A DNA stretch of 64,000 nt. Source: Panagrolaimus kolymaensis (taxonomy: Eukaryota > Nematoda > Chromadorea > Rhabditida > Panagrolaimidae). The position numbers and the translations under genes are program-made. Location: NCBI GenBank assembly GCA_028622995.1, contig JAJQJQ010000052.1:1736001-1800000 (forward strand), written 5' to 3'. Below, piece by piece: positions 200 through 15,250 of this stretch. Numbering within the stretch: the first letter of the stretch is position 1; each line of letters starts with the position of its first letter. The notes under the pieces were generated by a model. That model was not told the DNA's origin. It saw only the letters and a list, made by a program, of their open reading frames with translations, and did not search any database.

Positions 200-1798
200 A
201 TGCAATTTTATCCTTACATGTTAAGTTTTAATAATGAACCACCAACACAACTATACTCTCCTGAACGATATGAACCACAAAAAGCTATAGGAAAGGGTTC
301 ACAAGGAATGGTTTAGTATGTTTTATTTTTTGTCTTCAAAGTTAAAAATAAATAAATTAATAATTAAACCTTTTTATTTTAAGTGTTGCATATGATATAA
401 AGAAAATGAAATTTGTTGTTATCAAACAATTCACTCGATCATTTTCAAATGCTGAAGATGTGAAACGATATTGTCGAGAATTTGATTTGCACAGAATTGT
501 AAATCATAAAAATGTAAGCTTTTAAAAGTTTAGATGCTAGCTAAAATGTGGCTCATTTAAATATAAAGCTATAAATTGTAAAAATTTAATTACTAAATTC
601 TACAGTAAATTTTTGTGATTAAAAAAAGGACAAAAAAATTCCTTTTATTCAGCCTTGTTATTAGTCGGTTATAAAATACATATACTATTTTTATAACGAA
701 CACGTTTTACAGATCCTTAAATTAGAATATGCTTATACGACTGCAGATTCAATTTCAAACTTTAATGATATGTACCTAGTTACTGAACTTATGGATTCCA
801 ACCTTAATCAATTTCAAAAAAATAATCGAGGTCATTTTACACATCGATGTGGAGGAGATTTCATTGGATTATTAATACATTCAATTTTATCCGCTCTCAC
901 ATATTTACATCTAAATAATCTTGCTCATCGCGATATAACACCAGCAAATATTTTGGTTAAAAAATATCCAGAACATAAATTCAATTATGTTTTCAAACTT
1001 GCTGATTTTGGTTTATCCCGTAAACTTCCTGAGGATGTAAATCAAAATATCACTAAAGATATTGGAACTATGTTTTATCGAGCCCCAGAAATTATTTTAA
1101 CTGGAAACTATCGACTGTCGGTGGATTTGTGGTCGGTTGGATGTATCCTATATGAAATGATTATAGGCAACATTTTGTTTAAAATAAAAAATCAACATGA
1201 TACCCATGCTTTGCTTAATTTAATCGTTGATAAAATTTCACTCAGTGATGAAGAATTTTTTTCATTACCTAAATATATTATCGATTACACTTTAAAGCGT
1301 AACATCAATTATTATCAAGACAAATTGGACCAATTCTTACCTGATGACCTTCATGTATGGCCGGTCTCACATATTGGAATGAAAGAGTTTAGAAATCTTT
1401 TGCATCAAATGTTAGAATTTGATCCACAAAATCGAATAACTGCTGCTAAAGCATTAAACTTAGATATTTGGGATTATTTACAAAAGTGTAGTTTTTACCC
1501 TTTTGAAAATGATATGGAAATTATAAACCAAAACAGAGGTGAATATGATAGCAATGGAGATGCTGAATATTATAAAAGTAAGTGATTGAAGAAAAAATTT
1601 TCGTTTATCCGCTTCAAAAAATGTAATGAAAGCATGCCTTGAAAATTGAGTTTAAGACTCCATCACATTGCACCATCCTCTTTAGCAGTTATTGTGTTAA
1701 CTCATTGACTATGAAGCGTAACATTGTAATTTTTAGAGATACTATTCGAGCGACTAAATGAATATCAAGCAATGATTGCAAATAACTCCAACTCTTAA
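200..1798 (+). CDS. MAPK-like (CMGC group) protein kinase, divergent
   Basis: Four exons keep one frame: 200-315, 384-513, 713-1577 and 1737-1798, about 390 residues. Visible kinase landmarks are a glycine-rich loop (GKGSQGMVY), a VVIK lysine, the catalytic loop HRDITPAN, an intact ADFG, and YRAPEII followed by DLWSVGC. The order and the C-lobe motif LEFDPQNRITAAKAL are those of MAP kinases. Two departures stand out: the catalytic-loop lysine of HRDxKxxN is threonine, and there is no TxY dual-phosphorylation motif before YRAPE. The last exon encodes a short tail ending MIANNSNS. A TTGCAG acceptor lies just before the start and may be a trans-splice or 5'UTR splice site. It is a paralogue of the kinase at 48772 and of the fragment at 3719. 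Substrate and pathway are unknown; family assignment is firm, exact orthology is not. Confidence 0.85.
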
Positions 1799-3718: not shown

Positions 3719-4165
3719 ATGGAACAATTTAGCGCTTTGTTACAATACCTGCTAGAATTTGATCAACAAAATCGAATAACAGCTGGTGAAGCATTAAGCT
3801 TGGATATGTGGGATTCTTTAAAAAGATGCAAATTCTATGACTTTGACAATCCACCTGAAATTGAAAATGAACTCATAGTCAAATATGATGATAATGGCAA
3901 CGGTGATTATTATAAAAGTAAGTAAATAAAGAATAAGAAAAATCCATAGGCAAAGAAAAAGAAGTTATCGTAAAGCTGAATAAGCATTTCTAAATGTAAT
4001 TTTAAAGATGCTTTTTGGTTGTTGTTGTTGTGCCTACCTAATTTTCTTGCCTCCTATTTCATCTCTGCACATTTGTAATGAATCTGATTGCCACAATTTT
4101 TAGATACACTATTCAATCGACTAAACGAATATCAGGCAATGATTTCAAATAATTCCAACTCATAA
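3719..4165 (+). pseudogene. 3' fragment of a duplicated MAPK-like kinase gene
   Basis: Two blocks match only the end of the kinase at 200-1798. Block one (3719-3917) reads through LEFDQQNRITAGEALSLDMW, the end of the C-lobe. Block two (4104-4165) encodes the C-terminal tail ending MISNNSNS. The intron between them is kept at the same position and phase, so the copy arose at the DNA level, not from mRNA. Everything upstream, including the ATP-binding and catalytic loops, is missing; the sequence before 3719 is simple AT-rich DNA. The remaining frame is intact, so a short transcript cannot be excluded, but it cannot encode a kinase. Confidence 0.75.
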
Positions 4166-4416: not shown

Positions 4417-5210
4417 TCAAGCAACTTGTACAATAAGCTTTTTGTTTTTCATTTTGATTTCAGATGGTTGAGCAAGGAATTTATCATTTGAGTTATCAGA
4501 AGAAACCACATGAGAACGGAATGAAGTAGCAGCAATGGATTCCTAAAAGGAGAAAAGTATTAGTAAAGTTAAACCATAACATCGTAATTCGTAGAGTAGT
4601 GAACAAATACAAACCTCAGAAAGGTCATTCAATTCAGCCATGAGATCACTTTCGTCATAATCACAATGAAGAGGATTTGAAATTGCACCAGAAATTTGTT
4701 GACCAATATCATATTGTTCGGATATATCTTCCATAATATCATGCACTTTATCAACATCCATATTCTTGTTAGCAATTTTGGCAGTCTTTGAAGTTGTAGC
4801 AAGAACATCCAAAATATTGGCATGGAGTGAAGCATTTTCAAGCGATGTTTTTTGATTCTCTAAAGTTTGAAGGACGCCATCGATATGTTGTTGCTGCTTC
4901 TCCAGATTCTTCTTTCTTTTCAAAGCTTGAATGGCGAGTCGTTTGTTTGTAGAAGCATGAGTTCGAGCAAGAGCATCTTGCTAAAATGGAAAAAAGTAAG
5001 TAACGATTATAAGCATAAACATAAGATATACGATGTGAAGATAAACTCAATAAAAACACAAAAGCTTACTTCTTGTATTTGCTTTTCTAAAGCTTCTTGT
5101 TTCTTCATAAGTTGTTGTTCTGTTTCCATAATTTGACCAATAGAATCTTTCTTAGATACGGTAGAAGTCTTCTTCTTATGAGAGAAAAGTTTTTTGAGAA
5201 TCGTTGCCAT
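4417..5210 (-). CDS. vps-32: ESCRT-III subunit CHMP4/Snf7 (VPS-32 type)
   Basis: Three exons read 5070-5210, 4615-4980 and 4417-4542, 210 residues. ESCRT-III CHMP4 proteins polymerise on endosomal and other membranes and drive membrane scission after ubiquitin-dependent cargo sorting. The N-terminal basic helix, the long KKQEALEKQIQE helix, the ALKRKKNLEKQQQHIDGVL segment and the acidic second half with MEDISEQYDIGQQIS are typical, and the length fits the family. Odd feature: CHMP4 proteins normally end in a short amphipathic helix (pattern MxELExWA) that binds ALIX. This protein ends in a basic stretch, KMKNKKLIVQVA, with no such helix. The copy at 8874-9521 has the reverse pattern. No other gene lies within 250 bp downstream. 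Confidence 0.9.
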
Positions 5211-6990
5211 ACTTCTTCAATTGAGTGAGTAAAAGAAACTAAAAAGTTAAAAACGTTAACAAAAAATAAACCAAAACAAAAAAGAAAGGTTAACTAACCT
5301 TGAAAACAAAACAAAAAAATCGAACCTTAGCGTCTAACCTTTTCTCGAATGAGAGCCAATTTTCTTTTTTCTTGATCGATGGTGGGTATTTGCAAATGAC
5401 GATGAGAACTGAACAGAAAACATATTTGAGCGCTTTTTGAATGAAAGGGTTTGAAATAAAAGTGTGTAATTTTCCCCTGAGAGCTGAAAAAAAAAATTTG
5501 TTGTTTCAAGAAAAATAAAAAGGTCACGATCGCCAAGAAAGAAAGAAACGGCAATGATTTATGAAAAAAAAGCCTGTGAGTCTTTTTCACGATAAAAAAA
5601 AGAAAGAAGGAATAAATGAAAATGTATGTTATTAGCTAGCAGCAGCCGAAACTACAAAGATAAAAGATATCTATGATTATAAAATGTTTAATTAGCGAAA
5701 AGATAGGGGATGATGATGAAAGAGTAAAAATGCAATAATACATGAAAAAGCAGCTAGCTAAACACGTAAGAATAAAATCCATTATTTTTTGTTTGACAGC
5801 AAAATCTTGATTGAATAAAGGTGTAAAAAAGCAAACTTCAAAAATTGAAAGAGGTTTAAAAAAATTGGCGATGTGATGACTCATTCGAGTCAAACATGGG
5901 AAAGGTCCATCAAACTAACTTGAATGAATGAAAGCATAAAAGCTATGTTCGAGTTAGTAAACCAATTAATCATCCATCAGCTACAAAAAAAAAGTTTGAA
6001 TTGTTTAGATATGTACATACAATTAGTGGATTGGAAAATGAAAGCAGCCACTTTTGTTAGTGATAAAATCATCCAACAAAAAAAAACTTGAGCTGAATGA
6101 AGAAGCTCTTCTGAAAACTATTTTTGTTGTTGTTGCTTGTGTTGCTTAAAATTGAAATCCATTAAGTGAATCTTTATTTGTGATACATTTTTGGGTTTTG
6201 TAAATGCTTATTGCTTTCCAACCTTAACATGTTCAGGTACATATATCTAACAACAGCTACTACTAGAATTTCACGGTCATTTCACATATGTAAATCAAAA
6301 ATAAATAAACAAACAACCAAAAACATGATTAATGAAAGTTTAAAAAATATGAAACGTTTTTTTTGACATACAAGCTTTTTTAAACGGGTTTGTTGTTGTG
6401 CGTTTTTATATGTCGTCAGACTTCTTTGATTTTTTACTTGCTTCATTTAACAAGCAGACAGACGACAGACAAAAAAAAACTTCTGATGATTATATTCATG
6501 CGAACTTGTAAAAAAGCAAATTGCTTCTTCTATTTTTCATTTAGTTCAATGTCACTCACCTTCGTGAAATGAAGGAAGGAAGAGTTGATTAGTAAACGAA
6601 AATGAGTAAATACAATCCAAATTGAATGCTTCTAAGCTCCAGCGTTATTTATCATAAATCGTTTTTTAAAACCATTCCTTACTTAAAAAATTTTTTTTTA
6701 TTAATCTCTCATCTTTTTTATTTTCATCATCCGTTGTTTTCTTATATCAAAAATTATCAATGATAAAAAAAAGTATATACAAAATTTAGGTCAACAGCCT
6801 CGTCGTTCATTTCTTTCTATTGTATTTCATTTTTTTGACAAAAGGATAAAATAAAAATATAAAATTTTAATCAGGTTTGGCTGCTGGCTGAAGTTCATTA
6901 ACCCAAAGAAGAAAGAGGAAGAAGGAAGAACAACATCATTCGGTGGAAGTTGCAGAGCGGCGGCGGCAGCGGTGTAAATACAAAGAAAAA
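5211..6990. other. Intergenic, no supported gene
   Basis: This AT-rich stretch lies between the divergently transcribed CHMP4 gene (minus) and the small secreted-protein gene (plus), so it probably holds both promoters. Open frames here are low-complexity F/K/S-rich runs with no family match. The last 60 bases before the downstream start are purine-rich with CGGCGGCGGCAGCGG, likely 5'UTR. Confidence 0.6.
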
Positions 6991-8099: not shown

Positions 8100-8108
8100 A
8101 AAATATTG
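8100..8108. repeat. Candidate 9-bp target site duplication (left copy)
   Basis: AAAATATTG directly precedes the left terminal inverted repeat and recurs exactly at 13675-13683, directly after the right one. Nine bases is the usual duplication length of Mutator-like elements. The AT-rich composition leaves some room for chance, and the left end of the element looks about five bases shorter than the right. Confidence 0.65.
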
Positions 8109-8668
8109 AGAGTGTAGAATTTCTCCGAATAAGGAAACTCCGAATATGGAAACCGCAATGGAAACTCCGAATACGGAAACTTTGCTATTTTGAGGATTTA
8201 TAAGTATGAAACTTACAGAATAAGGTAATTTAGAGTCGATTTAACGATTTTTAATATTTCCAAACCCTTATGCATACAATATTAAGGATTGGCTGATGCC
8301 CTCAGGTGATGAATATGAAAACTTTACCATTTTGAAGGTTTATAGTTATGAAATTATCAGGATATGGTAATTTAAAGTTGATTTACCGATTTTTAATATT
8401 TCCAAACCCTTATGTTATTCACTATTAAGGATTTTGTTGATGCTCTGTGGGGAAAAACTTCTTTTTCTTCAAATTTTTGCATTTTACTTAGTATTTATTG
8501 GAGATTAATTAAAAAGGCTATTAAATAACTTTTAAAACCTTTTTTAACCATGAATATGCAAATTGATCCATATTTTTCAAATATTTTTAACTGCTGCAAT
8601 TATCAATAATTTTGCGAATCGCCTGTTGCTCATGGGCTTGATGCTTTCATTAATTTCTTTTACAACTT
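8109..8668 (+). repeat. Left terminal inverted repeat of the MULE
   Basis: Outer sequence CTCCGAATAAGGAAACTCCG and inner sequence CGCCTGTTG followed by ATGGGCTTGATGCTTT reappear in reverse complement at 13266-13674. Identity is high across the outer 200 bp and lower inward. This arm is about 150 bp longer than the right one because an internal segment is duplicated (8175-8450). The extreme left end lacks about five bases (the GGGAC of the right end), suggesting slight erosion. Confidence 0.85.
8175..8450. repeat. Internal tandem duplication inside the left inverted repeat
   Basis: Two units of about 135-140 bp (8175-8316 and 8317-8450) each contain GATTTTTAATATTTCCAAACC and end in a GATGCYCT segment. 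The first unit matches the right arm almost exactly, including GGCTGATGCCCTCAG; the second is more divergent (GTTGATGCTCTGTGG). The right arm has a single unit. The duplication is therefore specific to the left end and not recent. Confidence 0.75.
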
Positions 8669-8873
8669 TATATTATATAATCTTTTTTTGATAATAATAA
8701 TATTTTTATTCAATCAAAAACAAAAGTAACAAACAAACAAAAAAACAAAACAATAAAGTAAAAAATGTGTACATAATTAAATAATACAAGCAAAAGAAGG
8801 GACCAAGAGACCATTGACCCATAGGGAAGATGAATCGAATGACGAAATAAGTTTACATAATCCTTGATTGAAG

Positions 8874-9521
8874 TTACGATGTTGCCCATTGTTCCAATTC
8901 AGCCATATCATCTTCTTCTTTCTTGTTCTTTTGACCAACAGTAATAAGTTTTTCATTGATAGTTTCCTAAAAGTTAGCAAAGAATATAATAATAGTCATA
9001 CAAACAAAAAATAAGCAACTTACTTCTTCAAATTCTTCTAATTCAGCTAAAAATACACTTTCATCGATATCATTACCAAAACCAATGGGATTTGCGATAG
9101 CTCCAGCGATTTCATTTGCGACATCTTGTTGTTCAGAGATAAAAATTGATAAATTTCTTTCTAAACTTTTTCTTTGATATTCAATTCTTTGTAATACTCC
9201 GTCAATATGTAGTTGTTGCTTTTCATGATGCTTCTTTCTTTTCAATGCTTGTAAAGCGATACGCTTATTTGCCGAAGCATTTTTACGAGCTGTTTGAGTT
9301 TCCTATAAAAGTTTCATGTAATTAAAAAGAAAGAAAAAAAACAAAAATAAGCTTACCTGCTGAATCTTCTTTTCGAGGAAGTCTTGCTTTTTCATTAACA
9401 TTTTTTCAGTTTCACGTAGCTTTAAGATGGATTCTTGCGGTGTTGCCGCACATTCTTTTTTTATTAATTTTTCGAGCATCTTCTTCACTTTCTTCAAGAA
9501 CATTTTAATAAGTTGAGCCAT
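8874..9521 (-). CDS. Transposon-borne CHMP4/Snf7 paralogue with core deletion
   Basis: Three exons (9357-9521, 9024-9302, 8874-8966) give 178 residues. It shares with the host-like gene at 4417 the segments KKQDFLEKKIQQ, NASANKRIALQALKRKK, QQLHIDGVLQ and ISEQQDVANEIAGAIANP, and both introns at the same positions, so it derives from a genomic copy. Exon 2 is 29 codons shorter: the part of the core between LER and ISEQ (37 residues in the other gene, about 5 here) is missing in frame. The C-terminus ends in DDMAELEQWATS, the canonical ALIX-binding helix pattern that the other copy lacks. Frames and splice sites are clean. It may be a functional, altered ESCRT-III protein or a partial decoy; expression is unproven. 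Confidence 0.85.
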
Positions 9522-10048
9522 ATCTTCAAATCTAAAAAAACAAAAAATAAATATTTGACAATCAATTTGATGAAATTGTTTGCACGCCGCCGTCAAACAC
9601 ATTGAATACCGATGTTGGAAAACTTTCTGCAAATGAATAACTAAAAAAAGGCTTTGGCGCCTAATTCATCTCTCAAACATATTTCAAAGAGAAACAAATC
9701 AAAGAGAATGCTTTGAAGCACCTTTGAGGATATCTCAATCACACTTAAGTACCACTTGACATATGTTAATGAAGCAAGCATTTTTTTAACCGCCAACTTC
9801 TGAATCATTCAAAAACTTCATTCATTCAATACTTCCAGCGATCAGTTGCTTTTCTTCATTTCTCTTGAAAATATTTTAAAATACGCGAATTATTATTTTT
9901 TTGATATTTATTTCCAAATTATTATTTCATAGTTGATTAGAATTAGAATAAATTTATTTCAATTTTTATTCATCGGTTTATAATTTTCCGTCATTATCAA
10001 ATTTATGATTTCCATTTATGATTTTACCATTACAAATTTTATAGTACA

Positions 10049-13000
10049 ATGGCTTCTCAAAAACGTGTTATTGTTAGCGTTACCAATGAAGTGTCTTTGG
10101 ACGGTGACCAACTTATCAAAAATTTACTTGCATCTGGTTGGGCTCCCGCTGATATCAAGAAGCTCGCTAATGATCCAAATGCTGCTGCTTCTTTGGCAAA
10201 TGCAATTAAATCACAACCCGTAGAAGACATCCCTTCCCAACGTATTCCTTGGGATGATATTGAAATTCAAGATGCTATTTATGTATTTGAAGATAAAAGC
10301 AATAATGAAATAGAAACGCAAGAAGCTCTTGGAATCAAAATTGGCCAAATTTTGAATAGAAAAGCTGTATTAAAAGGCACTGTTTGCAAATATCTAAAAA
10401 GCCGTTCAACTCGACCCCAACAGTCTTATAGCAGGACGTAAGTTAATAGTTATTAGAATTTCATATTTAAATTTCAATTTTTTAAGGAATGATTATGAAT
10501 TACTTATGTCAGAAAAGCTCAATAAACATATTATTGTTATCAAAAAACCTGTATGCCGTATGTTTGTTCTCAATCAAAAAACAGAACAAACTTTATATTT
10601 TCGATGTGAAAAATGCAAAACACTTAAAGAAACTCATCCCAAATATCAAAAAATTATCGCCACTGCAATTTTAAATATGGTAACAAAAGAGTTGCGCTAC
10701 AAAGAACAACATCATGAACTTTGTGATGCCCATAATCCTCACCAAATTGCTGCGACCCAAATTATTAGAGAAGTGCATGAAAACCTCGAAAAAAATGATC
10801 ATGTAAATATTCAACAAGCCTTTGAAGAAGTTAGTTTATTTTAATTTTAATTTTGCATTATATTTATTCCGCAATTGTAGGGAAAGAAAAAAGCAGAATC
10901 TCAGGGAGATGCAATACTTTTTTACGACCCTTTGTCTCAGCAACGATATGGTCTTTATCGTGCGTCTAATAAGAATAAAAAAGAAATGGAAATTGCTCAG
11001 ACTAAAATGATTGGATTTGAACGTCAATTAGGAAAACGTTGCTGGGTAATTAATGAAAATGATAATGCAATGCTTGTCAGTACTCCTCGATTATTAAGAA
11101 CCCTTTCCGAAGCTACAATTGTCATGAGTGATTCAACTTTTCAATGTGCACCCAAAGATTGGAAACAAGTATTGTGTATTGTTGCTCTTGTCATCCCTGA
11201 TCACAATAAACCCACTGAACGAGAATGGGTTTGTGTAGCAATGGCGATAATGAAAAACAAGGAAAAGAAAAATTATTTAAATATTTTCGGATGGTTGAAG
11301 AAAGCTTTGGACCAATGTGGATTGAGATTATCGGCTGAGAGATGGCATGTAGATTTCGAAAAGGCTGCTTGGTCCGCTATTGAAAAACATTTTGGAAATA
11401 TTGTTCGTGGTTGCTTGTTCCATAGTAGCCAAGCTATTATCCGAAAAGCAAATACTTTGCATCTTATGCAACTTTACCAAACCCATGATACTGTTCGCCA
11501 ATGGATTAGAAATTTAATGGCTTTGCTATTGCTTCCCCATGATCATGCAATTATCGTATTTGATATGAAACTTGCAACACCTCCAGGAAGACCAAGAAAT
11601 GTTAAAAAAGAAGACTGGCCTATTAAGGAAATGAAAGTAAGATTAATTTTAATTTGTCAATTCGATAAATTTACAATTTATTTTTAGCAAATGATTGATT
11701 ATATGCGAAGCACATGGTTGAATGAAAATTTCAAAATATCATTTTATGGCATGCGATATTTCCGAAATACAAACCCTGTAGAATCATACAATGCATTTTT
11801 AAAGAGATCTGAATATATTCGAATTCATCCCGCATTATCCACATTTTTGACAACTTTAAAACGCCTTTTTTTGGATGCTAGCAATCGAGTGAAACAACTT
11901 AAATACAAACGACACACAAAGCATGTGCAAGTGAAATACCTCGATTTGGATGGTGACTTAGAAACCTTTGAAAACCGATATCGTACAGAAGTTATTGAAA
12001 TGGAAGATGAATTATCAGATGAAGAAATTGCAGAAAAAGCTTTGGAGCATGTCATTCGAGTTAGCTATTTGTTGCAAAAGGCTAAAAAAGTGAAATCTTC
12101 TCTTAAAAAATGTGGAATAGATTTGAATGCAACTGAAATGGGGGATGATAATGATGATGGCGATTCTGAAGAAAGCGATGCTGAAGAAAGCGATAATGAA
12201 GAAGAAATTGACAATTACCTTAACTTTTTTGCCTCAGATAATGATGCGGATGATGATTCTGATTTTATCGATGAACCCTCCAAATTATCAGAAACCTTGG
12301 TCAAAAATGTGGATGGATATGATACGGATGGAGAATTCATAAATGATGAAGATGATATCGAAAAACCTTTCGTTAATGCCAAAAGCTTTGATTATGATTA
12401 TGGCGATTATCACACACCTCCAGCTTACAGAGATGGTTATGTGCCAAGCCAAAAAGAAGAAAAAATCACGTCATTCTCTCGTTCTCGATCACCCCAGTCT
12501 TCTTTCAGCAGTTCCTTTAAAAGAAAAGCTCCAATGGAAGAAAGCAATTTTAAATCATCAAAATGTTTGAAGCCCTCAAATAGCCCTCAAAAAATTATAA
12601 TTCAAAGAGAATCATTACGAAATCATAGTGCATTGGCCGGCTTTAGACCTCCATCAGAAAAATTCTTTGCTGATACTTGTGATTATTTAAGAATTCCTAT
12701 TACAAAAACAAAAAATTCACCTTTAAGAAATATGAAAAATTTTGAAAGTCTTACTTTGCCCTTGACTGTTACCAACGTTCTTGGCGATGGAAATTGTGGA
12801 TACAGAGCATTCTCATATATACTTTTTGGAAAAGATAAATACCATTGGATGTTGAGAAAAAGAATTACTGAATGGCGTAATTTCAAAGAAGGTAAAAAAG
12901 GCGATGCAAAAAGACAATTAGATTTGATAGAACAAATGGAAAAGGAAAATAAAGATGGTAAAGCCGTGGGTGAAGAATTATGGATGGGTGCTGAAGATAT

Positions 13001-13193
13001 AAAAGCATTTGCTCAATTGTTCTTGGTTAATGTATTTTGTTATACAAAATATATCGATGCAGACACTCACAGATGGAATGTTTACAGCCCCGAAGAGAAA
13101 AAGAATTATGAACACAAACCTGGTTATCCAGATATTTGTTTATATTTCAAAAATAATCATTATCAACCCGTTTTGAAGACAAATGAACAATAA
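10049..13193 (+). CDS. MULE transposase fused to OTU cysteine protease
   Basis: Four exons (10049-10437, 10487-10829, 10881-11636, 11688-13193) give 997 residues. A 120-residue N-terminal region of unknown kind is followed by a zinc-finger-like FRCEKCKT...HHELCDAH segment (C2H2/C2HC order). The MULE transposase core follows, with MSDSTFQ (first acidic residue), WHVDFEKAAWSAI, GCLFHSSQ and NPVESYNAFLKR. After an acidic low-complexity linker (about residues 630-740) comes an OTU domain with GDGNCGYRAFS and a terminal NNHYQPVL, so the Asp, Cys and His expected of an active OTU deubiquitinase are present. The transposase would cut and insert the element; the OTU may trim ubiquitin from host or element proteins (inference). 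The start is chosen at the first in-frame ATG with a conserved reading frame. Confidence 0.9.
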
Positions 13194-13265
13194 TATGTTA
13201 TTTCTTTTTTGTTTTGTTTGTTATTTATATATTGCTAGAAAAATAAAAAAATTAAAATAATATTA

Positions 13266-13674
13266 AGTTGTAAAAGAAATTAAGCAAAGCATCAAGCCCA
13301 TTATCAACAGGCGATAAACTAATAATGGTAGCAGTAAAAAAATAGGTCAATGTGGAAAAATTTGCATATTCATAGTTTTAAAAAATGTCAAAAGTTATTT
13401 AATAGCCTTTTTAATTAATCTCCAATAAATTCTAAGTCAAATGCAAAAATTTGAAGATAAAAAAAATAATTTTCCCCTGAGGGCATCAGCCAATCCTTAA
13501 TATTGTATGCATAAGGGTTTGGAAATATTAAAAATCGTTAAATCGACTCTAAATTACCCTATTCTGAAAGTTTCATACTTATAAATCCTCAAAATAGCAA
13601 AGTTTCCGCATTCGGAGTTTCCATTGCGGTTTCCATATTCGGAGTTTCCTTATTCGGAGAATCGCACTCGTCCC
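13266..13674 (-). repeat. Right terminal inverted repeat of the MULE
   Basis: This is the reverse complement of the left arm, single-unit form. Its outer end reads CTCCGAATAAGG preceded by GGGACGAGTGCGATT on the reverse strand. It begins 72 bp after the transposase stop codon, so it probably also carries the transcript terminator. Confidence 0.85.
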
Positions 13675-13683: not shown

Positions 13684-13792
13684 CGTGTTTCCGATAATTG
13701 CCTTTCACCTTTTTATCTTTGATCTTTCTTTATAATGCTTTTCATTTTTTTCAGGAAAAGATCATCAATATCTTGATAACAGAAGTCCAACG

Positions 13793-15250
13793 ATGGTGGC
13801 ACTAAAGAATAAGAAAGAGAACGTCTTCGAATCCTCAACTGAAACTAATCCATCTCCTTCATCAAATGGTAAATCAAGATTATCAATCCTCAAACGTTCA
13901 GCAAAGAAACCGAAAGGTTAGTTGTTTACTTTCTTTATCTTCTTTTCATTTTTTTTTTTTTTTTCAGCTGCTAACATGTCTTCAAATGATCCATTTCGAT
14001 TTCAAGGAAGTGGAATTGATTTCAAAGGAAAGCTCATTGGATCAACTATAGTTCAAGAAGCTCGTCGAGAAGAAGTCTGTTCTGATGCTATGAAACTTGT
14101 CAAAGATGTTATCAAAGCTTCTGGAACTCATAAGCAACGAATTATCCTGAATGTTTCAATCGATGGTCTCAAACTTCGTGATGAAAGATCTTCAAATGGC
14201 ATTCGTGATTTCAATGTTTCCAAGATCTCATATGTTGCTCGTGATTCAACTGATCCTCGTGCTTTTGGTTTCATCGTTGGTAATGATGAAGGAAGATACA
14301 AATTCTATGGAATCAAAACAGCTCAAAATTCTGAACTTGTTGTTGCTGCCATTCGTGATATGTTTCAAGTTGTTTTTGAAATGAAGAACAAGCAAATTGG
14401 TGTCGTCAAACAAGGAACTGCTGAGGTTGGTTTGGATGGTTGTTAATAGCTTATTATAAACGTTTTTGTCTTTTAGGATTCTCTTCAAGCGTCTGCTGAT
14501 GATGATACTTTACGTGTTGAAACTCTCATCGACCTTGAATCAGAATACCATCAGCGGGTACCTCGGTTAACTGGCCAACCTCAACAATTACAACATTTAT
14601 TATATGGCCCTGGTGTTCATCACTCGTTTCCGTATTATGATGGTCATTATTATCGTCAACCTATTCCTCAACAGCTTTCTATGTCATTGCCTCAAACATT
14701 TGCTTCACCTCAACTTCAAACATTTTCATCTCCTCAACCTCAAGCATTCTCGACATCTCAACCATCACCGTATGCTCATCCATCAATTATGCATCGACCT
14801 CTTCAACTTTCCATGAATTCATCAAGTCAATCTGGTAATGGTTCAATGCTCAATTCTAGCATGTAAGTTTATTTTCTTACGTTTGTGTCTGTACTCGGTT
14901 TTACTTTTGTATGGTAGCTCAGCTGCCATTTTGCTTCATCTAATCGTTCATTTTTTAGGCCAAAAAGTGATGAAAGAAAAAGAAATATTGATGATCTTTT
15001 CAATGAACTAACCTTCGACACCAATGTATTAATGCAAAAGGTTCCTGCTGATGATGGAAAGAAAAATCCCTTCGAACATCTCATCAATCCACCAAAGCCA
15101 TCAATCGTTTCAATGGCATCTCAACGTGCTGGTTCTCCTCCAAATGCTGATGGAATTCCTCCTGGTGTTCAAAAACCTCAACATGGACTTTCAACTCGTA
15201 TGGATCCTATGAATGATGATCGCTTCAACAAAAGTATCAATGGCTTCTGA
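13793..15250 (+). CDS. dab-1: Disabled-like PTB-domain adaptor
   Basis: Exons 13793-13916, 13968-14425, 14477-14862 and 14959-15250 give 419 residues. Residues about 50-200 form a PTB domain of the Disabled type: GIDFKGKLIGST, HKQRIILNVSIDGLKLRDE, ISYVARDSTDPRAFGFI and IKTAQNSELVVAAIRDMFQVV. Dab proteins link LDL-receptor-family tails to clathrin-mediated endocytosis. The rest is Gln/Pro/Ser-rich with a KNPFEHL motif (NPF binds EH-domain proteins). The frame is open upstream of the chosen start back to a TTTTTTTCAG acceptor at 13754 (codons KDHQYLDNRSPT), so an upstream coding exon may exist. If so, the transposon would lie in the first intron. An AATAAA follows about 100 bp after the stop. 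Confidence 0.88.

What the first reader, a model, noticed from the sequence alone, without database searches (positions are those of the whole stretch)
8109..13674. Mutator-like transposon carrying an ESCRT-III gene next to a transposase-OTU fusion
The sequence shows an element with long inverted repeats and a 9-bp candidate target duplication. It holds a MULE transposase fused to an OTU protease with Asp, Cys and His all present, and an intact three-exon CHMP4/Snf7 gene. OTU proteases remove ubiquitin and ESCRT-III acts downstream of ubiquitin in membrane scission. Carrying both on one DNA transposon suggests either host-gene capture or a functional module acting on endosomes, the nuclear envelope or antiviral-like budding. 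A precedent for altered ESCRT-III copies acting on budding is retroCHMP3 in mammals; here the function is inference.
Basis: partly seen in the sequence, partly recalled or inferred. Interest (0 to 1): 0.88.

Follow-up and report, generated by a model that had tools for sequence, protein, structure and literature searches.

The report
Jumping gene carrying captured ESCRT-III gene
In this nematode genome a recently active DNA transposon has picked up most of a host gene for an ESCRT-III membrane-cutting protein, fitted it with a new front end and copied it to at least eight places, so the pairing seen in the window is real and not a chance neighbour.

Summary
Window 8108-13674 is a 5,567-bp Mutator-like element. 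Eight distinct full-length insertions in this assembly are about 99.9% identical and all carry the CHMP4 gene. The target duplication is 8 bp, not 9, perfect at 9 of 10 distinct sites. Two homoeologous contigs hold the empty site.

The CHMP4 block (about 8698-9598) is an insertion into a CHMP4-less MULE-OTU: in 5 of 6 relatives aligned, the sequences flanking it are joined. The donor is the host CHMP4 gene (220 aa, three homoeologues, 93% DNA identity including introns and 3' UTR), so capture was from DNA, not by retroposition.

The cargo is not an intact CHMP4. A new basic amphipathic helix of unknown origin replaces its start; 31 residues (net) at alpha3/alpha4 and a 22-residue linker are gone. 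Reading frame, splice sites and the residues matching Shrub R59/D79 survive.

The OTU domain belongs to the transposase backbone and predates the capture, so an OTU-ESCRT module is not supported. A cargo function is possible but unproven (cargo-host dN/dS 0.22-0.24). My searches listed no printed precedent for a transposon-borne ESCRT-III gene.

The parts
8108..13674 (.). MULE-OTU transposon with CHMP4 cargo, 5,567 bp (starts with G at 8108)
   Evidence: nine assembly copies including the window's, eight distinct sites; the G is shared by all copies
8100..8107 (.). left 8-bp target site duplication AAAATATT
   Evidence: single copy at the empty homoeologous sites L043 and L044
13675..13682 (.). 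right 8-bp target site duplication AAAATATT
8108..8697 (+). left terminal inverted repeat region (outer about 190 bp 96-98% to the right arm, inner part about 82-87%)
13245..13674 (-). right terminal inverted repeat region
8123..8181 (+). 15-bp tandem repeat (4.1 copies, CTCCGAATATGGAAA) inside the left terminal repeat
8698..9598 (.). inserted cargo block; the sequences on its two sides (element positions about 589 and 1491) are contiguous in CHMP4-less relatives
   Evidence: boundaries accurate to a few bases
8762..9449 (-). part of the block homologous to the host CHMP4 gene (from within exon 1 through both introns into the 3' UTR), 93% identical
9357..9521 (-). CHMP4 cargo exon 1 (codons 1-55); codons 1 to about 24 (about 9450-9521) are new sequence coding a basic amphipathic helix
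9024..9302 (-). CHMP4 cargo exon 2; carries the alpha3/alpha4 deletion around residues 104-111
8874..8966 (-). CHMP4 cargo exon 3, stop codon included; lacks a 22-codon linker, keeps the C-terminal MAELEQW segment
9532..9533 (-). AG of a candidate splice acceptor (TTTTTTTAG) 10 nt upstream of the cargo ATG, possible trans-splice site
   Evidence: sequence; meaning of the motif recalled, not tested
10049..10437 (+). transposase-OTU exon 1
10487..10829 (+). transposase-OTU exon 2 (RYYR-CCHC domain, starting at the end of exon 1)
   Evidence: PF23674 E 2e-7, above its cut-off
10881..11636 (+). transposase-OTU exon 3: D328, D402 and the GCLFH (C422/H425) motif
11688..13193 (+). transposase-OTU exon 4: E528, acidic linker, OTU with D863, C866, H987; stop codon included
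12717..13190 (+). C-terminal OTU-like protease region

Best explanation
This is a recently active MULE, apparently autonomous, whose transposase ends in an OTU protease. In the ancestry of this triploid Panagrolaimus nematode a CHMP4-less copy acquired a genomic stretch of the host CHMP4 gene (most of exon 1, both introns, exons 2-3, part of the 3' UTR), probably by template switching while a break or gap in the element was repaired. The stretch lies between the left terminal repeat and the transposase promoter, reading outward, and gained a new upstream region and a new start that encodes a basic amphipathic helix. In the same or later events internal pieces were lost without closing the frame. 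The composite then multiplied by cut-and-paste with 8-bp duplications. Shown: element, copies, duplications, empty sites, insertion block, donor gene, open frame. Inferred: template switching, autonomy, expression, and that the cargo protein can join host CHMP4 filaments through its preserved alpha1-alpha2 surface while touching membrane through a different anchor. I put about 0.3 on the cargo doing something selected for and about 0.7 on a so far tolerated passenger.
For: Nine full-length assembly copies with 4 variable sites in 5,566, all with CHMP4. Perfect 8-bp duplications at 9 of 10 distinct sites. Homoeologues L043 and L044 carry the uninterrupted site with one AAAATATT. In L017, L018, L020, L024 and L026 (5 of 6 aligned, from two sequence groups) the two sides of the cargo block are contiguous; L017 has four transposase exons matched without stops and gives no CHMP4 match. 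Cargo versus host gene: 93% identity including introns and 3' UTR. Transposase under purifying selection against L017: dN/dS 0.16-0.27 in the four segments computed, exon 2 not computed. Identity to L017 swings between 65% and 99% in 200-bp steps of the coding region, the mosaic expected if sequence exchange between elements is frequent.
Against: No transcript, peptide or transposition assay. No other source in this assembly for the 161 bp around the new start (10 of 10 matches are copies of this element), so the capture was not one clean copy of one locus. The closest CHMP4-less relatives are only about 82-86% identical, so the direct parent is not seen. L016 lacks a duplication. L021 also lacks the block, but its junction does not align cleanly. 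Selection on the cargo after capture is only weakly indicated.
Confidence: 0.9

Rival explanations
1. On function: the cargo is a neutral or mildly harmful passenger, an accident of repair that multiplied because it sits in an active element, with the frame open only because it is young.
For: The copies are nearly identical (4 variable sites in nine copies, one of them an amino-acid change in the window's own CHMP4), so an open frame in all of them says little. Cargo-private changes are 10.5 nonsynonymous to 6.5 synonymous, only a weak shortage of nonsynonymous change (binomial P 0.03 for 10, 0.09 for 11, of 17). CHMP4-less L017 also has an open transposase, so the cargo is not needed for an element to persist.
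Against: Cargo-host synonymous divergence (0.15) is no smaller than that between the host homoeologues over the same codons (0.13), so the frame has outlasted some divergence, including a 66-bp deletion and two deletions (17 and 76 bp in the alignment) that keep the frame only together.
Confidence: 0.6
2. On function: the cargo is a working or dominant-negative ESCRT-III subunit that helps the element, for example by changing nuclear-envelope or membrane repair when DNA breaks are made, or by disturbing ESCRT function of the host.
For: Open frame with GT-AG introns and a polyadenylation signal; residues matching Shrub R59 and D79, a protomer contact described in PMC9320689 section 2.2, are kept (R69, D89, mapping mine); residues 2-22 are strongly amphipathic and basic (moment 0.62, reached by 33 of 10,000 shuffles); net charge +1 against -15 in the host protein; pairwise cargo-host dN/dS 0.22-0.24, bootstrap against C67 0.09-0.50.
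Against: The pairwise ratio includes the strongly constrained host branch (0.07 between homoeologues). Alpha3 and part of alpha4, and the linker, are missing. No expression data. The helix test was chosen after seeing the sequence.
Confidence: 0.3
3. OTU and CHMP4 were brought together as one ubiquitin-ESCRT module.
For: Both are in every full-length copy found.
Against: OTU is present without CHMP4 in L017 and in MULE families only about 32% identical in the catalytic region; OTU and Ulp1 domains are known on other transposable-element proteins (PMC2836005, passages).
Confidence: 0.04
4. CHMP4 is a chance host neighbour trapped between unrelated inverted repeats, or an assembly artefact.
For: None found.
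Against: Eight distinct sites with different duplications, and empty homoeologous sites.
Confidence: 0.01

Closest known systems
Pack-MULEs and animal Pack-TIRs (Ssk-FB4 in Drosophila), PMC8277862
   Same: A MULE-type element with long terminal repeats that carries a copy of a host gene and multiplies with target duplications; template switching (FoSTeST) is proposed there (passages).
   Different: Here the element also encodes its own transposase, the cargo is most of a gene with its introns, and the host is a nematode. That paper reports no Pack-MULE in its 100 animal reference genomes, with Ssk-FB4 found in fly populations.
KI-MULEs (Kaonashi, Ulp1-carrying plant MULEs), described in PMC13317346 and PMC8277862
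   Same: A MULE with coding capacity carrying a captured host-type protein domain.
   Different: The cargo there is a Ulp1 protease domain in non-TIR plant MULEs (passages); here it is an ESCRT-III subunit in a long-TIR animal element.
Tm1 elements of root-knot nematodes (Phantom subclass of MULEs), PMC3169594
   Same: Nematode MULE with composite terminal repeats containing 13-15-bp tandem units, unequal outermost bases, mostly 8-10-bp duplications and an N-terminal zinc-finger-type domain (passages).
   Different: The Tm1-A transposase is 496 aa and the word OTU does not occur in that paper's main text; no ESCRT gene in the passages seen.
Ginger1 transposases with C-terminal OTU or Ulp1, PMC2836005
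   Same: DDE transposase with a C-terminal OTU protease.
   Different: Ginger1 is a Gypsy-integrase-like transposase, not a MULE (passages).
retroCHMP3 (a title in the reference list of PMC7618577; content recalled)
   Same: A duplicated and altered ESCRT-III gene.
   Different: A retrocopy in mammals, truncated at the C-terminus (recalled); this cargo keeps introns and C-terminus and sits in a DNA transposon.

Membership tests
MULE superfamily (Mutator-like elements) | DDE transposase with MULE-type motifs | tested here: met
   D328, D402, GCLFH and E528 invariant in three divergent families of this genome (the L054 row was joined by hand; that these are the MULE motifs is recalled). Pfam MULE itself stays below its cut-off of 27.6 bits: 19.1, 21.3 for L017 and 14.1 for L053.
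MULE superfamily (Mutator-like elements) | terminal inverted repeats with 8-11 bp target duplications (range recalled) | tested here: met
   long terminal repeats; 8 bp at 9 of 10 distinct sites
Phantom subclass (as used for Tm1) | N-terminal FLYWCH-type zinc finger | tested here: inconclusive
   PF23674 RYYR-CCHC above cut-off (E 2e-7); no FLYWCH model listed; no tree made
OTU proteases | OTU sequence family with catalytic Cys and His | tested here: met
   Profile of 8 sequences matches OTUD1 (E 2.6e-7) and OTUD3 (4.9e-5); D, C and H invariant in 8 of 8. Pfam OTU gives 22.0 against a cut-off of 23.3 bits, and 6 of 8 members match at E 1. The single-sequence structure model was useless (pLDDT 39.6).
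OTU proteases | deubiquitinating activity | not testable with these tools
   needs protein
CHMP4/Snf7 (ESCRT-III) | Snf7 domain with CHMP4 as closest relatives | tested here: met
   Pfam Snf7 E 1.4e-14; best PDB match CHMP4B E 8.1e-22; best protein match CHMP4b of Panagrolaimus davidi
CHMP4/Snf7 (ESCRT-III) | complete core including alpha3/alpha4 and the native N-terminus | tested here: not met
   31 residues net lost at alpha3/alpha4, native N-terminus replaced, linker lost; helix names recalled
CHMP4/Snf7 (ESCRT-III) | membrane-bound filaments | not testable with these tools
   needs protein
Pack-MULE / captured-gene MULE | host-derived segment inside the element with an identifiable donor outside | tested here: met
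Pack-MULE / captured-gene MULE | non-autonomous, no transposase of its own (the strict sense) | tested here: not met
   full transposase-OTU frame in the same element

The most novel reading that the evidence does not exclude
A DNA transposon has turned a host ESCRT-III subunit into a tool of its own: a shortened, more basic CHMP4 with a new membrane-binding helix, made from the element, that co-assembles with host CHMP4 and changes nuclear-envelope or membrane repair to the element's benefit.
Probability: 0.22. Interest if true: 0.88.

Novelty: new variant of a known kind. Interest (0 to 1): 0.68.

Why it matters
Gene capture by MULEs is well described in plants, but a survey of 100 animal reference genomes reported no Pack-MULE (PMC8277862, passages). 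Here an animal MULE with its own transposase carries most of a host gene, introns included, and the donor, CHMP4-less relatives, filled sites and empty sites are all in one assembly. That makes the capture route directly readable. It also opens a test of whether transposons exploit ESCRT-III, and shows a young burst in what is probably a parthenogenetic triploid (species assignment inferred).

Tried and rejected
Chance neighbour: rejected by copies, duplications and empty sites. Retroposed CHMP4: rejected, introns are kept and are recognisably the donor's. OTU-ESCRT module: disfavoured. Source of the new N-terminus: not found by a genome search or by a short-word search of the window and 14 loci, which gave only matches of 12-25 bp outside the query itself. 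Relatives of the transposase in other species: two protein searches gave no match at E 0.001 (exon 4, 7,992 candidates scored; residues 134-620, 6,391 candidates), so its spread outside this genome is unknown. OTU structure prediction failed; no fold search was run. The exon-2 model (one helix, residues 2-70, mean pLDDT 88) lacks exons 1 and 3 and is only suggestive. The ESCRT-III inventory (PF03357) and the SL1 RNA family (RF00198) could not be searched. The first dN/dS run (0.42-0.46) included the non-homologous N-terminus and junction and was replaced. NCBIfam gave nothing for the cargo. Paper searches for ESCRT-III with DNA transposon and transposase, CHMP4/Snf7 with nematode, paralog and transposable element, MULE or Mutator with OTU, gene capture by Mutator-like elements (20 of 67 papers listed) and Panagrolaimus with Mutator listed no title that reports this element or a transposon-borne ESCRT-III gene; only an open-access library was searched, and most listed papers were not opened.

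Full report
Where it is. The window is contig C51, bases 1,736,001-1,800,000, of an assembly of 265,843,910 bases in 807 contigs. The best named protein match of the cargo is CHMP4b of Panagrolaimus davidi. Regions come in threes: host CHMP4 on C29, C67 and C63, the window's left flank on C51, C43 and C61. This fits the triploid P. kolymaensis assembly: 266 Mb, 856 contigs, with 49 mitochondrial contigs identified, and 856 minus 49 is 807 (PMC10374039, passages). The species assignment is my inference.

The element. Its inverted repeats are 196 bp at 96% plus inner arms. Part of the outer repeat is a 15-bp tandem array. A genome search with 807 bp of the transposase gave 19 matches, nine of them full length at 100%, the window's included. 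Nine full-length sequences differ at only 4 of 5,566 positions. L009 and L011 have identical flanks over 1,891 and 2,097 bp, so I count eight distinct sites. L022 and L035 are internally deleted: L022 lost CHMP4 and the first part of the transposase; L035 kept CHMP4 except its first codons and lost most of the transposase. Every copy begins with the G at window 8108, and 9 of 10 distinct sites then have a perfect 8-bp duplication; L016 has none. At the window site both homoeologous contigs have uninterrupted sequence with one AAAATATT.

The transposase. Four exons give 997 aa. A RYYR-CCHC domain scores above Pfam's cut-off; MULE and Peptidase_C65 score below theirs. Aligned with two families of the same genome that are only 33-34% identical, the D, D, E and GCLFH positions are invariant. 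A profile of eight OTU regions matches OTUD1, OTUD3 and OTUD5 in the PDB, with Asp, Cys and His invariant. The protein evolves under constraint: dN/dS against L017 is 0.27, 0.16 and 0.22 for exon 1, exon 3 and exon 4 before the OTU, and 0.16 for the OTU; exon 2 was not computed. Synonymous divergence falls from 1.2 in exon 1 to 0.09 in the OTU, and identity in 200-bp steps of the coding region ranges from 65% to 99%. The element is therefore a mosaic.

The capture. In L017, L018, L020, L024 and L026 the end of the left terminal repeat runs straight into the sequence that in the window element follows the CHMP4 block. These five fall into two groups of alike sequences, so they are not five independent witnesses. 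L021, the sixth aligned, also lacks the block but does not align cleanly at the junction; L019 and L023 do not cover it. L017 has its four exons matched without stops and gives no CHMP4 match. The block therefore most simply entered a CHMP4-less element. The donor is the host CHMP4 gene: 663-bp coding sequence, 220 aa, same two intron positions. Over the shared stretch cargo and host are 93% identical: 29 of 467 exon positions, 15 of 107 (C29) or 17 of 99 (C67) intron positions, and 2 of 112 3'-UTR positions differ. At sites where C67 and C63 agree, the cargo shares 12 states with C29 alone, 8 with C67/C63 alone, and has 32 private ones. It thus branched near or before the homoeologue split, whereas the present copies are very young.

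The cargo protein. Host MLGRIFGGKKEPA is replaced by MAQLIKMFLKKVKKMLEKLIKKEC. That part and its upstream region were found nowhere else in the assembly outside this element. Residues 2-22 are amphipathic (moment 0.62; 33 of 10,000 same-composition shuffles reach it) and basic. At alpha3/alpha4, 39 host residues are replaced by 8. In the alignment this looks like two deletions, each out of frame, that together keep the frame, though one complex event would do as well. A 22-residue linker is also gone. Kept are the alpha1-alpha2 hairpin, including R69 and D89, which I map to Shrub R59 and D79 (PMC9320689 section 2.2, read whole; alignment, in which one Shrub chain bears Glu at the position I map to R59), and the C-terminal MAELEQW segment. 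An exon-2 model is one unbroken helix across the deletion, suggestive only. Both introns are GT-AG, a TTTTTTTAG lies 10 nt before the ATG, and AATAAA signals follow both genes.

Selection. Over 145 homologous codons cargo versus host dN/dS is 0.22-0.24 (bootstrap against C67: 0.09-0.50); between host homoeologues C29 and C67 it is 0.07. Private cargo changes count 6.5 synonymous and 10.5 nonsynonymous, a weak shortage of nonsynonymous change (P 0.03 or 0.09 by rounding). These numbers allow both a constrained cargo and a passenger. The copies are too similar for a test among themselves.

OTU and CHMP4. An OTU search of the assembly gave 54 matches, including families at 23-43% identity to the query. 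L053 and L054 show the OTU downstream of a MULE-like catalytic region on the same strand. The OTU is thus old in these MULEs and the CHMP4 is a late arrival, so a joint ubiquitin-ESCRT function has no support beyond co-occurrence. OTU and Ulp1 domains on other transposable elements were noted before and a role in transposition was proposed (PMC2836005, passages).

Known or new. Gene capture by MULEs is a known kind. A survey of 100 animal genomes found no Pack-MULE in reference genomes and described Ssk-FB4 of fly populations as Pack-MULEs (PMC8277862, passages). [quoted passage not shown] My searches listed nothing on a transposon-borne ESCRT-III gene. I therefore file it as a new variant of a known kind: a multicopy animal MULE with its own transposase, carrying a re-fitted ESCRT-III gene.

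Noticed in passing
window 4606-5216 (minus strand): A second, diverged CHMP4-like gene about 3 kb from the element, with its alpha3/alpha4 region present; it has homoeologues on C43 and C61 (93% over 1.8 kb), so it looks like a host gene and not cargo.
   Followed up: partly
L037, L038, L039, L040 and related places on C34, C3, C14, C42, C214: Several further diverged CHMP4-like sequences; no terminal-repeat match in the 2.3-2.7 kb fetched for the four loci. The host seems to have an expanded CHMP4 family.
   Followed up: partly
L053 (C13:2275200-2281200) and 13 further places with an 800-aa frame: Another MULE-OTU family with an 800-aa transposase frame in many equally scoring copies, perhaps also recently active.
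   Followed up: partly
L054:3218-4729: A roughly 1,500-bp near-perfect palindrome (95.5%) between the catalytic and OTU parts of a distant MULE-OTU element.
   Followed up: no
window element versus L017: Synonymous divergence drops from 1.2 in exon 1 to 0.09 in the OTU: sequence exchange between element subfamilies.
   Followed up: partly
L016: A full-length copy without a target duplication; possible recombination between copies.
   Followed up: no
window 13775-15250: The element lies just upstream of a gene that looks (recalled, not searched) like a Disabled/Numb-type PTB protein; an effect on it is untested.
   Followed up: no
window 1379-1596 and 3719-3936: A 72% direct repeat of what looks, by eye, like the C-terminal end of a protein kinase gene; perhaps a partial gene duplication.
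   Followed up: no
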